Shown: in pieces, positions 1-32,587 of the stretch
Layout: each line of letters begins with the position of its first letter
Numbering within the stretch: the stretch's first letter is position 1
DNA from: a virus
Direction: 5' to 3' (one strand)
Virus record (IMG/VR): IMGVR_UViG_3300037847_004595
Location: 1 to 32,587 of that record
DNA length: 32,587 nt
Made by a program: the position numbers and the translations under genes
The notes under the pieces: generated by a model
What the model was told of the DNA's origin: nothing
What the model saw: only the letters and a program-made list of their open reading frames with translations
Database searches by the model: none

Positions 1-175
1 CCTTTACGTTGTTGATCCAAACAATCCGGTCACGGATCCAAACACCGGCGTTGTTTCTGACTTCACTTGCAACGAATCAATTTCATTCAAGCAAACGGCT
101 TCGTTCTTGAATAAAAGTCTTTACAACGCGCCGTCAATCTTTACGAATCCGACCTTTGAATTGAAGCGAAGCGGA
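1..175. repeat. Terminal repeat marking the circular join (copy 1)
   Basis: This stretch matches 32413-32587 over all 175 bases except three positions (80 A/G, 133 G/T, 136 A/G in copy 1/copy 2). The frame crossing the join stays open in both copies. The simplest reading is assembly overlap of a circular or permuted genome, giving a unit of 32412 bp. The mismatches suggest two co-existing haplotypes rather than one clone. A true short direct terminal repeat is less likely because it would lie inside a coding region and would not be expected to diverge. Confidence 0.9.
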
Positions 176-7670: not shown

Positions 7671-7790
7671 AATATTGGGCGCGGTGGCGCCGATCGTTTG
7701 ATCAAAACACAAACCGGCGCGGCGGCGCTTCACGCAAATTGAAAACGAAGGAAAAGTTCCTTCAATGTTTAATATTTAAAATTCAAAAAA
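7671..7790 (+). promoter_or_regulatory. Capsid mRNA leader with GC-rich direct repeat and hairpin
   Basis: This 120-base gap before the capsid gene holds two near-identical GC-rich 13-mers, GGCGCGGTGGCGC at 7678-7690 and GGCGCGGCGGCGC at 7716-7728. Between them are the palindromes CGATCG (7691-7696) and TTTGATCAAA (7697-7706). GCGCCG at 7687-7692 can pair with CGGCGC at 7715-7720 or with 7723-7728. Downstream, GAAGGAA (7747-7753) and TTCCTTC (7757-7763) form a perfect 7-bp hairpin with a 3-base loop. No T-run follows, so a simple terminator is unlikely. The role is unknown; mRNA stabilisation or translation control of the capsid gene is plausible. Confidence 0.5.
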
Positions 7791-17165: not shown

Positions 17166-18242
17166 ATGAAACAAGAAATTTCAACAACGGCCGTCAACAC
17201 GGTCGATCACGCGACGTTGAAGCAATATTTGCGCGCCGCGAACCTTGTCGGACATTTGACCGACGCCGAAACCGATCAATTCATTCAGATTTCAACCGCT
17301 TTCGGATTGAATCCTTTCAAGCGTGAAATCTACGCTTCGAAGTACGGAAACAACTTTTCAATTGTTGTCGGTTATGAAACCTATATCAAACGCGCCGAAC
17401 GATCCGGCAATCTTGCCGGTTGGAAGGTAACGACGGAAGGATCCGTCAACTTTCAAAAACCGAACGAAAGCGATTTGAAAGCCGTGATCACTATTCACCG
17501 AAACGATTTCAAGTTCCCTTTTGAACATGAAGTCTATTTTTCGGAATATTGTCAAAGGACAAGAAACGGCGATTTAACGCGTTTTTGGCGCGAAAAGCCG
17601 ATCACAATGATCAAAAAGGTCGTCATGTCGCAAGGATTCCGTCTTTGCTTTTCTGACGAACTCGGCGGCATACCGTACACGAAAGAAGAAATCGGAAACG
17701 AAACGATTGACACCGAAGCGATTGTTGTTGATCACGGCAAACAAATTGATCAATCGGATCCGGTGATCCAGGAAATCACGACCGAACAACAATTCCAGGA
17801 AGCCGAAAAAATGCTTGAAACGGCAACAAGCCGCGAAGATTGCGTCAAGGTTTGGAATGCTTTTCCGGATCTAAAAACCGAAGAAGACTTCATTGATTTG
17901 ATCAAAGAAAAGACCGAAGCGATCAAAAACGGCCTTTTAAGCGATTCAAAAGAAGAAAAGGTTGAAGAACCTTCCGAAGAAGAAAAGAAGCCGGAAATCG
18001 AACCGGAACCGCCAACAAAGCAAGAAGAAGATCAACCTTCGACCGGCGGATTTGAAATTCATGACGAAGGAACGCTTTTTGACGGATCACAATCATTCAA
18101 CGCGCCGGAAGCAATTAAACGAATTCAAGTCATGGAAGCGGACGAAATACTTCATTTCGTTGCTTCGGAAACAAGGAAAAGCGTCAACGACGCCGCTTCA
18201 AAACGTATTCAAGAACTAAACAACGACGAAAATGAATCTTGA
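17166..18242 (+). CDS. bet: Bet/RecT-family single-strand DNA annealing protein with acidic C-terminal extension
   Basis: The N-terminal part (about 1-180) has the pattern of phage Bet proteins: a helical start, FGLNPFKREIYASKYG, VVGYETYIKRAERSGNLAGW, FREKPITMI-like (WREKPITMIKKVVMSQGFR) and FSDELGGIPYTKEE. These proteins anneal complementary single strands in recombination and replication. The usual length is near 260. Here residues 259-295 form a Pro/Glu/Lys-rich acidic linker and 312-352 a helical C-terminal segment. The start follows an AAAATCGAAA leader. The usual 5'-3' exonuclease partner is not seen nearby. The stop overlaps the next start by 11 bases. Confidence 0.88.
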   Translation: MKQEISTTAVNTVDHATLKQYLRAANLVGHLTDAETDQFIQISTAFGLNPFKREIYASKYGNNFSIVVGYETYIKRAERSGNLAGWKVTTEGSVNFQKPNESDLKAVITIHRNDFKFPFEHEVYFSEYCQRTRNGDLTRFWREKPITMIKKVVMSQGFRLCFSDELGGIPYTKEEIGNETIDTEAIVVDHGKQIDQSDPVIQEITTEQQFQEAEKMLETATSREDCVKVWNAFPDLKTEEDFIDLIKEKTEAIKNGLLSDSKEEKVEEPSEEEKKPEIEPEPPTKQEEDQPSTGGFEIHDEGTLFDGSQSFNAPEAIKRIQVMEADEILHFVASETRKSVNDAASKRIQELNNDENES

Positions 18243-18660
18243 TCAAAGAAGAAAGCTTGTCAAGGATCGGATCCTTCACAAGTTCGGATCGGTGAACGCT
18301 TTTGCAAATCACCGAAAGCAAGAATTGAATTCCTGGATCATTGTTCGAACTCTAAACGGTGAACGAAAGAAGGATCAAGAACGGTTCCTTCAAATAATTG
18401 CCGAAGGTTGTGAATACTTGAAGCCGGAAAAAGAAATCCTTGAATCAACGCGTCAATTCATTCGAAGAACGGTGTTGTTGAACTATGGATCTTTTGCTTC
18501 GTTCAATCGTGAATTTCCGCGCTTTGGAACGACGTTCTTGTCGAACGTGATCAACGGAAACAAAAAACTATTTGACGACAAAACACGCGATCTTTTGAAT
18601 GTTTGCTTTGTCATTCATTCAAGACCGCAAGACGCCTATGAAAAAGAATTCAAGAAATAA
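18232..18660 (+). CDS. Tandem helix-turn-helix-like protein
   Basis: This 142-residue basic protein appears to consist of two copies of one motif. Copy 1 (about 10-60) has FGSVNAFANHRK and VRTLNGERKK; copy 2 (about 77-127) has YGSFASFNREFP and SNVINGNKKL. The FGS-x-x-x-F-x ... LNG-x-(R/K)K layout resembles small Xre/Cro-like HTH units. Period is about 66 residues. It overlaps the recombinase gene by 11 bases and the replication-initiator-like gene by 23. It could bind operator or origin repeats. DNA binding is inference from the pattern. Confidence 0.6.
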   Translation: MNLDQRRKLVKDRILHKFGSVNAFANHRKQELNSWIIVRTLNGERKKDQERFLQIIAEGCEYLKPEKEILESTRQFIRRTVLLNYGSFASFNREFPRFGTTFLSNVINGNKKLFDDKTRDLLNVCFVIHSRPQDAYEKEFKK

Positions 18661-19405
18661 GGCGCCGGCTTTTCAGTTTTACGCGGCCGATTGGTTGACC
18701 GACACGTCGCTTCGATTGGTGTCTTGTGAAACGCGCGGCGTTTGGATTGATCTTCTTTGTCATGCGTTTCTTTCTTCGGATCCTGGTTTCTTGATTGTAG
18801 GCGGTCAAGTATTGGACGAAAGCGGAATCCGCAAATTGTCCGGATTGACGCCGAAAAAGTTCAAAAAAGTCTTCAATGAATTGACCGATTTCGGAATCCT
18901 AAAACGTGACGAATTCGGAAGGTATTATTCCAAACGAATGGTTGAAGACGCGCGTCTTTCCAGGATAAGACGTGAAGCCGGATCCAAAGGCGGAAATCCT
19001 AACTTGATCAAAAAGGTTCCGGATTTGGTTAACCAAAACGACAACCAAAATCAAACCCTTTCATCTTCTTCTTCTTCTTCTACTTCTATTCAGAAGAAAA
19101 AAAAGAAAAAAGAAGTCATTGTGATTGATCATGTCTTTGATCGGTACGTCAAAGAAAATTGTCCGCGAATCGCTTCATTGAAAACGCAATTGACTTTGAC
19201 GAATTGCGAAAACCTGGAAGCGACATTCGGAAAGAAAGACGTGATCGAAATCTTTGATCAAATGGAAAATTTCAAAAAATTGAACACGAACTATTCTTCG
19301 GTCTATTTGACCGCGAAGAATTGGTTGAAAAAACGGAAAGAACATGAACGAAATTCAAAAGACGGAAGGAAACCTTCCTTCGAAGAAAAGCTTCGCGATT
19401 TCTAA
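18638..19405 (+). CDS. Replication initiator-like protein (winged-helix N-terminal domain)
   Basis: This 255-residue protein starts at 18638 inside the end of the preceding gene. The N-terminal half resembles the Lin1244/Lin1753-type (DUF4373) initiators: AFQFYAADWLTD, a helical segment with RGVWIDLLCHAF, LSGLTPKKFKKVFNEL and GILKRDEFGRYYSKRMVED. These domains bind the origin. A linker of seven serines and six lysines (about 141-160, encoded by a TTC microsatellite and an A-run) leads to a smaller C-terminal domain. No helicase or polymerase gene is present, so this protein probably recruits host replication proteins. An origin could lie inside or beside this gene, but no clear iterons were seen. 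Confidence 0.75.
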   Translation: MKKNSRNKAPAFQFYAADWLTDTSLRLVSCETRGVWIDLLCHAFLSSDPGFLIVGGQVLDESGIRKLSGLTPKKFKKVFNELTDFGILKRDEFGRYYSKRMVEDARLSRIRREAGSKGGNPNLIKKVPDLVNQNDNQNQTLSSSSSSSTSIQKKKKKKEVIVIDHVFDRYVKENCPRIASLKTQLTLTNCENLEATFGKKDVIEIFDQMENFKKLNTNYSSVYLTAKNWLKKRKEHERNSKDGRKPSFEEKLRDF

Positions 19406-20207
19406 AAGGCAACAAGTCAAAGAAGAAATCAAAAGCGAAATCAAGATCCGTGACATTGAAGGCGACGAAGAAATCAAACAAGCGCTTCGATACGTCTTCA
19501 CGTTGATCGGATTGAAACCGGATCAAATTCCTGGTGACATTGAAAAGATTGTCTTGATTCAATACATCAAAGACAATTTCAAATCGTACACGCCGAACGA
19601 AATCAAGATCGCGTTTGAACTTGCTATCAAAGGCGACTTCAACACCGAATTGAATCACTACGGATCTTTTTCCGCGCTTTATATGTCGCGGATCTTCAAT
19701 GACTACATTGAACACCGTCGTCAATTGGTGTCCGAAGTCATGCGCGAAAAAGCTGAAATCGAAAGAAAGAAGCGTGAAGAATACATGAACCGGCCGGAAG
19801 TCATTGAAGAACAAAACCGACGATTCGATTTGAACGTCATTCAAAAGCTTTTTGAAGTCTTCCAGGACACCGGAAAGCTTGACTTCGGTCTTTTGCCGCC
19901 TTCGGTCGTTTACAAAGCTTTAAAAAAGCGACACGGCTTGTTTGATCTTTCAAAGGACGATCAAACGCGAATCATGAATGAAGCAAGGAAGAAAACCGAA
20001 TCGGAAATCAAACACCGTCTTGAACGCTTCGGAACGCGTGAAGACAATGAATTCAGAAAGACAATGAAAGACGCTTTGAAAGGTGACGAAAAGCGCGATC
20101 AAATCTTTCAAAGACATTGTCACTTGATCGCAATCGAAGAATTGTTTCAAGGCCTGGTCGATCAAAATGACGACTTGAAAAATCACTTTAAAAATCAAAA
20201 CGAATGA
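19344..20207 (+). CDS. Hypothetical replication-associated protein
   Basis: This 287-residue protein overlaps the initiator gene by 62 bases, and no later ATG is available near the N-terminus. It is helical and highly charged. A first domain (about 40-130) includes KSYTPNEIKIAFELAIKGDF and GSFSALYMSRIFNDY, then comes a charged helix (REKAEIERKKREEYM) and a C-terminal helical domain. The tight overlap with the initiator suggests a joint role, for example as loader or adaptor for the host helicase. No Walker A motif is present, so it is not an AAA+ loader of the DnaC type. Confidence 0.6.
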   Translation: MNEIQKTEGNLPSKKSFAISKRQQVKEEIKSEIKIRDIEGDEEIKQALRYVFTLIGLKPDQIPGDIEKIVLIQYIKDNFKSYTPNEIKIAFELAIKGDFNTELNHYGSFSALYMSRIFNDYIEHRRQLVSEVMREKAEIERKKREEYMNRPEVIEEQNRRFDLNVIQKLFEVFQDTGKLDFGLLPPSVVYKALKKRHGLFDLSKDDQTRIMNEARKKTESEIKHRLERFGTREDNEFRKTMKDALKGDEKRDQIFQRHCHLIAIEELFQGLVDQNDDLKNHFKNQNE

Positions 20208-20413
20208 AACCACAAATCAACGCGTCAAAGGCGCTTCAATTCCTTTTAAATAACGAATACCAACGTTTCAAGATTGCGTTCATTGAATTGAACGAAAAGC
20301 AACCGGAAGAAGATCAAAAACCGGTTCCAACGTTTGACGTTTGGCTTTCAAGTTTAGGAATCACGGAAGAAAAATCTTCAATTATCAAGCCGAAAGGATT
20401 CTTCGGAAAATAG
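20204..20413 (+). CDS. Small hypothetical protein before ssb
   Basis: This 69-residue protein is coupled to the preceding gene by an ATGA overlap. It has a helical N-terminal half and an acidic/Pro middle with a C-terminal segment IIKPKGFFGK. No family was recognised. Its stop codon supplies the first base of the pseudoknot candidate that precedes the ssb gene, so its translation could influence that structure. Confidence 0.6.
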   Translation: MKPQINASKALQFLLNNEYQRFKIAFIELNEKQPEEDQKPVPTFDVWLSSLGITEEKSSIIKPKGFFGK

Positions 20414-20443
20414 ACGGAAGCGATCACCGTCAATTTTGATCGC
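20413..20443 (+). promoter_or_regulatory. Candidate H-type pseudoknot in the ssb leader
   Basis: Stem 1: GACGG (20413-20417) with CCGTC (20427-20431), 5 bp. Stem 2: GCGATCA (20420-20426) with TGATCGC (20437-20443), 7 bp. Loop 1 is AA, no base separates stem 2's first arm from stem 1's second arm, and loop 3 is 5 bases. This is a textbook H-type geometry. It ends 15 bases before the ssb ATG, and the intervening leader is A-rich and unstructured. T4 gene 32 mRNA is known to use a leader pseudoknot plus an unstructured tract for autogenous repression by its SSB. The same logic here is inference. Confidence 0.5.
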
Positions 20444-20458
20444 ACAAAATCAAACAAA

Positions 20459-20836
20459 ATGAACAAACACTTCATCACCGGCAACGTCGGAAACGATCCG
20501 GAAATCAAAAAGCTTGATTCCGGAATGACAATCGCGAAAATGTCAATCGCGGTCAATGAATTCAAAAAAGACAAGGACACCGGACAACGTGAAAAATCGA
20601 CAACCTGGTTCAACATTGTCGCTTTTGGAAAGCTTGCGGAATTGGTTCAAGCTTACGTCAAAAAAGGAAAGAAGATCCTTGTGATCGGAAAGGTTTCAAT
20701 TCGCGAATATATCGGCGAAGACGGCGTCAAAAGGTACTTCACCGAAACGATCGCCGACGAAATCGAATTCTTGTCAACCGCAAAGGAAGACAATCAAATT
20801 CATCAAGATCATGACGAAGACGATCTTCCGTTTTAA
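20459..20836 (+). CDS. ssb: Single-stranded DNA-binding protein
   Basis: This 125-residue protein has the OB-fold SSB pattern: FITGNVGNDPEIKKLDSG at the start, AKMSIAVNEF, TTWFNIVAFGKLAELVQAYV in the core and KGKKILVIGKVSIREY. The C-terminus is the acidic tip DEDDLPF, the site used by bacterial SSBs to recruit partner proteins. It is slightly shorter than cellular SSBs because the linker is short. It lies after the replication genes and next to the Bet module, so it probably serves both replication and annealing. The leader holds a candidate regulatory pseudoknot. Confidence 0.95.
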   Translation: MNKHFITGNVGNDPEIKKLDSGMTIAKMSIAVNEFKKDKDTGQREKSTTWFNIVAFGKLAELVQAYVKKGKKILVIGKVSIREYIGEDGVKRYFTETIADEIEFLSTAKEDNQIHQDHDEDDLPF

Positions 20837-20845
20837 CAAAGCAAT

Positions 20846-20863
20846 GTTGAAAACCTTTTCAAA
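20846..20863. promoter_or_regulatory. Inverted repeat, candidate operator (second copy type)
   Basis: TTGAAAA (20847-20853) and TTTTCAA (20856-20862) form a perfect 7-bp palindrome with a 2-base centre, preceded by G. It resembles the palindrome at 15227-15245 and lies 5 bases before a TTGAC promoter-like element that is also shared with the 15.2 kb site. With a 2-base centre it is a poor hairpin but a good dimer-binding site. Confidence 0.45.
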
Positions 20864-20867
20864 TAGC

Positions 20868-20901
20868 TTGACAACTAATTGCAAGAAATTTGATACATTC
20901 G
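20868..20901 (+). promoter_or_regulatory. Early promoter candidate for the 20930-22396 gene cluster
   Basis: TTG at 20868-20870 is followed after 23 bases by TACATTCG (20894-20901), a one-mismatch version of TAnnTTTG at an acceptable distance. The internal sequence TTGACAACTAATTGCAAGA is nearly the same as that at 15270. It precedes the AAAATCGAAA leader (20918-20927) of the first small gene. Confidence 0.5.
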
Positions 20902-20929
20902 TTTCAATTGTTTAACTAAAATCGAAAAC

Positions 20930-24854: not shown

Positions 24855-24859
24855 TTGAC

Positions 24860-31144: not shown

Positions 31145-32587
31145 ATGATATTAAGTAATTGTTTCAACGACATCACAAGCGGATTGACCAACAAGATCTA
31201 TCAAGGTTGTTGTTGTTCTTTTACTTGTACGGTAACGCCGGAAAAAGGCGAAGAATGCTTTCGAATCACGGATCTTCAAATCAATCCGAATAGCGGCGAA
31301 GACGGCAACACACAAGTCACGGCGGTCAATGGAAATCCGCTTCCGGTGTCGCCTTTTCCTTTCAACGCGCCGTTCACCTTCGATATAATTCTTTGTTCGT
31401 CCGCGACGGTTCAAACGCGTCGATACACGTTTTTCATTGCCTACATTGATTGTAAAGGTATCGGCCAAACGCAACAATGGGAACTTGACATTGAAACAAT
31501 TGACTTTTCGCAATCCTGGAATCCTTCCGGAATCAACAACACTTTGCCGCACAACTTCGGAAACGTTGCCGTCGGACAAAGCGCAACGTTTCAAGCGATC
31601 TTCACAAACCTTCAAGCTTGTTCAATTGAAATTCAAGACAACATTTCCGGTTCGAATCCTGGTGAAATCACTTCGGACTTTCCAGGCGGTCAAGTCGTTG
31701 TTCTTCCGGCGCAAAGCTTGACGATCAACTTCACTTTTACGCCTTCGGCCGCCGGACTATATCAAGCAACACATTCTTTCCTTTCAAGCAAGTGCGGAAA
31801 TACCCTTCTTGGCGCAATCCGCTTTTCCGGAACCGGTGAAGATACACCGCCGCCGACCGATTGCATCTATTGCGAAGACGTCACCTATCACACGGAAGAC
31901 GACTTGATCGCGGTTCAAAATATCGGTTGCAATTTCAATCCGGCGAACTATGTCGGTTTCAATGCTTTCGGTGAAAAGAAGTCTTTTGAATTTACTTACA
32001 ACTACGCGGCCGGCCTTGCAAACGGCTTCAAGATTTGGTTTGTTCCGGAATTTTGGGCGGACTTTTGTGATTTCGCGGCGTACTATCCGAACAACTTCAT
32101 CAATCAACCGCCGCCGGTGGCCTGGTTCATCAATTACAACAACGGAATCACGACAACGACGGCAATGACTTTGACCGGCGCCGGTGCCGCGACAAATAGT
32201 CAAAAGAACTTCCTTGCGGAATTTGTTCCAATAAGCGGAACACAATTCAAGATTCGATTGACATTCTTCTTCGGAATGGATCTTGATTCCTGGTTGAATA
32301 GCGCCTTGCTAAACAATCAAGACCGATTCTTGAAGTCTTCACGATACGAAACGACACAATTGACGAACAATGTTCCGTCGGTCTTCAATCAAGATCGTCA
32401 AGCTTGTTTCTTCCTTTACGTTGTTGATCCAAACAATCCGGTCACGGATCCAAACACCGGCGTTGTTTCTGACTTCACTTGCAACGAATCAGTTTCATTC
32501 AAGCAAACGGCTTCGTTCTTGAATAAAAGTCTTTACAACGCGCCTTCGATCTTTACGAATCCGACCTTTGAATTGAAGCGAAGCGGA
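31145..32587 (+). CDS. Tail tip/adhesin-like structural protein, N-terminal part (continues at position 2 across the join)
   Basis: The frame runs from the ATG at 31145 off the window end and continues in phase at base 2; the whole protein is about 963 residues. The first 40 residues hold a CCC triplet and more cysteines. Residues about 130-235 look like an ASH/HYDIN-type Ig-like domain: FGNVAVGQSATFQAIFTN, then a hydrophobic FTPSAAGLYQATHSF strand pair and IRFSGTG. CIYC follows near 242. The rest is beta-rich with many aromatic residues. Ig-like domains in phage tail proteins often help bind the cell surface. It follows the hub-like gene and has its own promoter element. Confidence 0.75.
   Translation, partial: MILSNCFNDITSGLTNKIYQGCCCSFTCTVTPEKGEECFRITDLQINPNSGEDGNTQVTAVNGNPLPVSPFPFNAPFTFDIILCSSATVQTRRYTFFIAYIDCKGIGQTQQWELDIETIDFSQSWNPSGINNTLPHNFGNVAVGQSATFQAIFTNLQACSIEIQDNISGSNPGEITSDFPGGQVVVLPAQSLTINFTFTPSAAGLYQATHSFLSSKCGNTLLGAIRFSGTGEDTPPPTDCIYCEDVTYHTEDDLIAVQNIGCNFNPANYVGFNAFGEKKSFEFTYNYAAGLANGFKIWFVPEFWADFCDFAAYYPNNFINQPPPVAWFINYNNGITTTTAMTLTGAGAATNSQKNFLAEFVPISGTQFKIRLTFFFGMDLDSWLNSALLNNQDRFLKSSRYETTQLTNNVPSVFNQDRQACFFLYVVDPNNPVTDPNTGVVSDFTCNESVSFKQTASFLNKSLYNAPSIFTNPTFELKRSG
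32413..32587. repeat. Terminal repeat marking the circular join (copy 2)
   Basis: Second copy of the 175-base overlap. The three differences from copy 1 change one codon conservatively (Val here, Ile in copy 1) and two codons silently (Pro and Ser), as expected for natural variants under purifying selection in a coding region. Confidence 0.9.

What the first reader, a model, noticed from the sequence alone, without database searches (positions are those of the whole stretch)
20411..20461. H-type pseudoknot just upstream of ssb, recalling T4 gene 32 autoregulation
Two interlocked perfect stems (20413-20417 with 20427-20431; 20420-20426 with 20437-20443) with loops of 2, 0 and 5 bases form an almost ideal H-type pseudoknot. 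It ends 15 bases before the ssb start, and the intervening bases are A-rich and unstructured. T4 gp32 is known to nucleate on a leader pseudoknot and repress its own translation. An independent occurrence in a Bacteroidota-type phage with a bacterial-style SSB would be new. GATC-containing words are common in this genome, so chance pairing must be considered.
Basis: partly seen in the sequence, partly recalled or inferred. Interest (0 to 1): 0.65.

Follow-up and report, generated by a model that had tools for sequence, protein, structure and literature searches.

The report
Conserved RNA pseudoknot before phage ssb
Just before the gene for its single-strand DNA-binding protein, a phage that probably infects Bacteroidota carries a short conserved sequence that can fold as RNA into a knot with nearly the dimensions of the one phage T4 uses to control its unrelated counterpart gene, which suggests that the same kind of control may have arisen twice, although no function has been shown.

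Summary
Bases 20413-20443 can form an H-type pseudoknot (5-bp stem 1, loop AA, 7-bp stem 2, no inter-helix loop, 5-base loop 3), 15 bases before ssb. By a nearest-neighbour estimate it is the most stable on the window's + strand; 46/300 shuffled windows hold one as stable somewhere, but 0/20,000 shuffles of the ssb leader do. It is conserved: 28/31 bases identical in three phage lineages, against 50-61% for the rest of the leader. A sister clade with the same gene order lacks it; there the upstream stop codon touches the ssb start. The same scan recovers the T4 gene 32 pseudoknot with almost the same geometry (4-1-7-0-5 against 5-2-7-0-5).

Limits: three lineages, no compensatory change, and one lineage breaks a stem 1 pair (A-U to A.G), leaving a weaker predicted fold. 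The protein is PF00436, not gp32. SSB binding and repression are untested. No match to Rfam or STAXI, none in 396 Bacteroidota genomes.

Verdict: probably a real cis-acting leader element. T4-like autoregulation is the leading hypothesis, not a demonstrated fact; ribosome decoupling, hairpin-only and DNA-site readings remain open.

The parts
20413..20417 (+). Stem 1, 5' strand (GACGG); first base is the last base of the upstream stop codon TAG
   Evidence: identical in all three lineages
20418..20419 (+). Loop 1 (AA), crossing the deep groove of stem 2
20420..20426 (+). Stem 2, 5' strand (GCGATCA)
   Evidence: invariant
20427..20431 (+). Stem 1, 3' strand (CCGTC); CCGGC in G002-G004, giving one A.G mismatch
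20432..20436 (+). Loop 3 (AATTT; AAAAT in the relatives)
20437..20443 (+). Stem 2, 3' strand (TGATCGC)
   Evidence: invariant
20444..20458 (+). A-rich linker to the start codon with A at -3, -6, -12 and -13, the reported initiation signature of Bacteroidia; sequence only 50-61% identical in the related lineages
20459..20836 (+). ssb: 125-aa OB-fold single-stranded DNA-binding protein ending DDLPF
   Evidence: phrog_44 E 3.2e-41, PF00436 E 1.1e-29
20204..20413 (+). Upstream 69-codon ORF of unknown function; its stop codon touches stem 1
   Evidence: about 60% and 56% identical in the two related lineages

Best explanation
Bases 20413-20443 are a cis-acting RNA element in the intercistronic leader of ssb that folds into a coaxially stacked H-type pseudoknot. 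Most likely it is a translational operator: when SSB exceeds the available ssDNA, SSB nucleates on or next to the knot, covers the A-rich unpaired initiation region and first codons, and blocks 30S binding, which in these hosts is thought to rely on upstream adenines and not on a Shine-Dalgarno sequence. Shown here: the sequence, its pairing potential, its conservation, its position and its geometric match to T4. Inferred: that it is transcribed in this form, that it folds in vivo, that SSB is the ligand, and that translation is repressed. My estimates: functional leader element of some kind about 0.8; pseudoknot forms about 0.65; SSB autoregulation about 0.4.
For: Most stable predicted pseudoknot on the + strand, far above other gene leaders, 0/20,000 leader shuffles as good. 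28/31 bases identical in three lineages, while the rest of the leader is 50-61% and the upstream gene 59-64% identical; within 18240-20890 it is the only non-coding stretch so conserved. Two of the three differing columns lie in loop 3. Conservation covers GACGGAA, which lies outside the simple hairpin and is explained by stem 1. The positive control recovers the T4 gene 32 pseudoknot with 4-1-7-0-5 geometry, 39 bases before the ATG. T4 gp32 is reported to nucleate on its pseudoknot and spread into the unstructured region (PMC535899; PMC3014915), and there too the pseudoknot overlaps the upstream reading frame. Clade-restricted presence mirrors RB49, which lacks the T4 pseudoknot.
Against: No compensatory change. 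In G002-G004 stem 1 has an uncompensated A.G mismatch; the predicted fold drops from -15.84 to -11.05 with a 3-bp stem 1. The linker is 15 bases, against 39 in T4. The A-rich linker is ordinary for this genome. The sister clade's ssb lacks the element, so control by it is not general. PF00436 SSBs are not gp32 homologues, and I found no paper showing autogenous control by one (open-access library only).
Confidence: 0.4

Rival explanations
1. The pseudoknot controls ssb translation without SSB. It separates, spaces or couples initiation at ssb from ribosomes terminating at the upstream ORF, which melt and refold it.
For: In the knot-less sister clade the upstream stop overlaps the ssb start (ATGA in L199/L209) or lies one base before it (L211), as in coupled genes; in the knot clade the stop lies 46-51 bases upstream and the knot fills the gap. 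Stem 1 overlaps the stop by one base (window, G002-G004) or starts one base after it (G001). The knot ends just upstream of the adenines used for initiation.
Against: Does not explain by itself why the exact knot sequence is kept, since any spacer could separate the genes; no ligand is needed or identified.
Confidence: 0.25
2. Only the stem 2 hairpin forms; it is an ordinary intercistronic hairpin that affects mRNA processing or stability.
For: Stem 2 is invariant; as a hairpin it is -7.5 kcal/mol in all lineages; the one stem change breaks stem 1.
Against: Does not explain the conserved GACGGAA and CCG.C segments outside stem 2. No U-tract follows and no terminator is predicted there.
Confidence: 0.14
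3. It is a double-stranded DNA site: the 7-bp dyad GCGATCA-N10-TGATCGC is an operator or replication-protein site.
For: Perfect 7-bp dyad in a replication-gene cluster.
Against: Single copy in the window, no other GCGATCA dyad. No sigma-70-like promoter nearby and no TTG-N-TAnnTTTG match just upstream of ssb. The spacer and 5' flank are conserved as well.
Confidence: 0.1
4. A neutral sequence inherited from a common ancestor; the pseudoknot is chance pairing.
For: Only three lineages; 15% of shuffled windows have an equally stable pseudoknot somewhere.
Against: Neighbouring non-coding bases are only 45-72% identical over the same divergence, and the element lies immediately before ssb.
Confidence: 0.1
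5. A recoding element (stop readthrough or frameshift) that makes an upstream-ORF-SSB fusion.
For: In the window, TAG and everything up to the ssb ATG is open in the ssb frame.
Against: In L002 and L029 the frame after the stop meets another stop before ssb (sequences). The knot abuts the stop with no spacer.
Confidence: 0.01

Closest known systems
T4/T2/RB69 gene 32 translational operator (gp32 autoregulation)
   Same: H-type pseudoknot upstream of the phage SSB gene, overlapping the preceding reading frame, followed by an unpaired A-rich initiation region; scan geometry 4-1-7-0-5 (T4) against 5-2-7-0-5 here; patchy presence among relatives (RB49 lacks it).
   Different: No sequence similarity seen by eye; the protein is a PF00436 bacterial-type SSB, not gp32; linker 15 against 39 bases, without UUAAA repeats; the host probably does not use Shine-Dalgarno; no functional data.
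STAXI motif (RF01728)
   Same: Candidate pseudoknot RNA often near SSB genes (PMC2864571).
   Different: STAXI is two or three tandem pseudoknots, often with UUCG tetraloops; here a single knot, and no STAXI match above cut-off in the window or six relatives.
Pseudoknot operators of ribosomal protein genes such as S15 (from general knowledge)
   Same: A leader pseudoknot recognised by the gene's own product.
   Different: Different protein and different relation to the start site; not tested.

Membership tests
T4-type gene 32 translational operator | H-type pseudoknot in the leader of the phage SSB gene | tested here: met
   Pairing and energy scan, conserved in two further lineages, T4 leader as positive control; folding itself not probed
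T4-type gene 32 translational operator | Adjacent unstructured stretch of >40 nt with UUAAA/UAAA repeats reaching the start site | tested here: not met
   15-nt A-rich linker without such repeats, of a composition ordinary for this genome
T4-type gene 32 translational operator | Downstream gene is a gp32 homologue | tested here: not met
   PF00436/phrog_44 SSB, no gp32 family match
T4-type gene 32 translational operator | The SSB binds the leader specifically and represses its own translation | not testable with these tools
   Needs binding and reporter assays
T4-type gene 32 translational operator | Compensatory changes in both stems among relatives | tested here: inconclusive
   35/36 cells pair, none covary, one mismatch
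STAXI (RF01728) | Match to the covariance model; tandem repeated pseudoknots | tested here: not met
   Best score 5.9 bits against a 40.5-bit cut-off, elsewhere in the window; the element is single copy
Any Rfam 15 family | Match at gathering score | tested here: not met
   None in the window, L002 or L029; the T4 gene 32 region also gives none

The most novel reading that the evidence does not exclude
A second, independently evolved pseudoknot operator through which a phage SSB, here a bacterial-type OB-fold SSB in a host lineage that does not use Shine-Dalgarno signals, represses its own translation: convergence on the same knot architecture as T4.
Probability: 0.33. Interest if true: 0.75.

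Novelty: new variant of a known kind. Interest (0 to 1): 0.52.

Why it matters
[quoted passage not shown] An unrelated phage SSB gene with a near-matching, conserved knot gives a concrete second case to test, in hosts whose ribosomes are reported to ignore Shine-Dalgarno sequences.

Tried and rejected
Recoding or readthrough fusion: rejected because the relatives' frames close. N-terminal extension of SSB: rejected because in-frame stops lie between the element and the ATG in L002 and L029. Mobile or repeated element: no second copy in the window. Presence in hosts: 0/396 Bacteroidota genomes with RNA model R1, noting that no genome known to hold the element was in that set. Search for compensatory variants: stem 2 fixed with stem 1 free and stem 1 fixed with stem 2 free gave only the known lineages plus unrelated chance matches; an exact core pattern gave 20 stretches, all but L008 unrelated by context. 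General trend of pseudoknots in SSB leaders: none clear (12/135 distinct leaders at p<=0.05, including the three of this clade). Cultured phage relatives: none close. Paper searches for autogenous control by bacterial-type SSBs gave nothing direct.

Full report
The window is a 32,587-base IMG/VR virus record. The ssb gene lies at 20459-20836 and encodes a PF00436 SSB with a C-terminal DDLPF. It follows RecT (17166), a replisome-organizer-like gene (18599), a phrog_26016 gene (19344) and a 69-codon ORF (20204-20413). The host is inferred, not shown: SSB relatives in genomes are mainly Flavobacteriaceae, gene starts are A-rich, and a TTGAC-N-TACATTCG promoter-like sequence lies after ssb.

Observation. 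The reported pairings are exact. I scored H-type pseudoknots with nearest-neighbour stacks, coaxial stacking and a fixed 9.6 kcal/mol penalty; this is my approximation, not a published program. The ssb knot scores -15.84 and is first on the + strand; the next is -12.53. The minus strand has one candidate at -16.36. Among 300 dinucleotide shuffles of the window 46 reach -15.84 somewhere; among 20,000 shuffles of the ssb leader none do; the next best of 31 gene leaders is -7.66. Existence is therefore unremarkable for a genome this size; the position just before ssb is not.

Conservation. IMG/VR scans found two further lineages with the element: G001 (L002; SSB 77% identical) and the near-identical contigs G002-G004 (L027-L029; SSB about 70%). 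Alignment A8: window GACGGAAGCGATCACCGTCAATTTTGATCGC; G001 differs only in loop 3; G002-G004 also change the fourth base of stem 1's 3' strand, T to G. Element identity to the window is 29/31 and 28/31, against 61% and 50% for the rest of the leader and 64% and 59% for the upstream gene. A sister clade (L198, L199, L209, L210, L211) with homologues of the surrounding genes has a clean gap of about 37 bases instead. There the upstream stop overlaps the ssb start as ATGA, or lies one base before it; in the knot clade the stop is 46-51 bases upstream. The element was therefore gained in, or lost outside, one subclade, and its presence goes with separation of ssb from the upstream stop.

Structure or sequence? 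All seven stem 2 pairs and four of five stem 1 pairs never vary; one stem 1 cell is broken; there is no covariation. The data fit a pseudoknot and explain why GACGGAA, outside the hairpin, is conserved, but they do not prove it. The G002-G004 variant is still predicted to form a shorter knot at -11.05, against -7.5 for the stem 2 hairpin by ViennaRNA; the two scales are not strictly comparable.

Comparison with T4. On the T4 gene 32 leader (NC_000866) the same scan finds UGCCAGCUAUGAGGUAAAGUGUCAUAGC, stems of 4 and 7 bp, loops of 1, 0 and 5, -10.59, 39 bases before the ATG; 1/2000 shuffles is as good. Published work describes the T4 operator as a ~28-nt pseudoknot followed by an unstructured region over 40 nt long (PMC535899), with the pseudoknot overlapping the upstream segG frame. 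RB49, a T4 relative, lacks the knot (PMC3014915). Architecture and position are alike; protein family, linker length, UUAAA repeats and sequence are not.

Initiation context. Bacteroidia initiation is reported to rely on adenines at -3, -6, -12 and -13 and low structure (PMC9976891). The ssb leader has all four, as does G001; G002-G004 have three. The knot ends at -16, so a protein spreading from it would reach this region. The A-rich linker itself is ordinary here and present in the knot-less sister clade, so it is not evidence for SSB binding.

Mechanism. I favour an autogenous translational operator (0.4), then SSB-independent ribosome coupling or separation (0.25), hairpin only (0.14), DNA site (0.1) and neutrality (0.1). 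Recoding is excluded by the relatives' reading frames. Steps shown: pairing potential, conservation, position, geometry. Steps inferred: transcription as this leader, folding in vivo, SSB as ligand, repression.

Scope. STAXI (RF01728), another pseudoknot motif seen near SSB genes (PMC2864571), does not match. No Rfam family matches; the T4 region is not matched either, so Rfam silence is weak evidence. The element was not found in 396 Bacteroidota genomes.

Noticed in passing
window 1-175 and 32413-32587: The two ends are a 98.3% identical 175-base direct repeat, so the record is probably a complete, circularly assembled or permuted genome with an imperfect end overlap; no exact terminal repeat was found.
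   Followed up: partly
window 20849-20905: After ssb: an AT-rich inverted repeat (TTGAAAACCTTTTCAA) and a Bacteroidota-like promoter sequence (TTGAC...TACATTCG from 20868); a similar arrangement is visible in L002. ssb may end a transcription unit.
   Followed up: partly
window 7687-7731, minus strand: The minus-strand pseudoknot scan has one slightly more stable candidate (-16.36, reverse-complement position 24857); its conservation was not tested and the main genes lie on the other strand.
   Followed up: no
window 20204-20413; L199, L209, L211: The 69-codon ORF before ssb is kept in position across the clade but has no significant family match. In the knot-less sister clade its stop overlaps or touches the ssb start codon.
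   Followed up: partly
L029 3331-3987: G004 carries a 218-aa ORF after ssb (ELFAGSRSVGKVGE..., DNA-methyltransferase-like by eye) that was not seen at the same place in the window.
   Followed up: no
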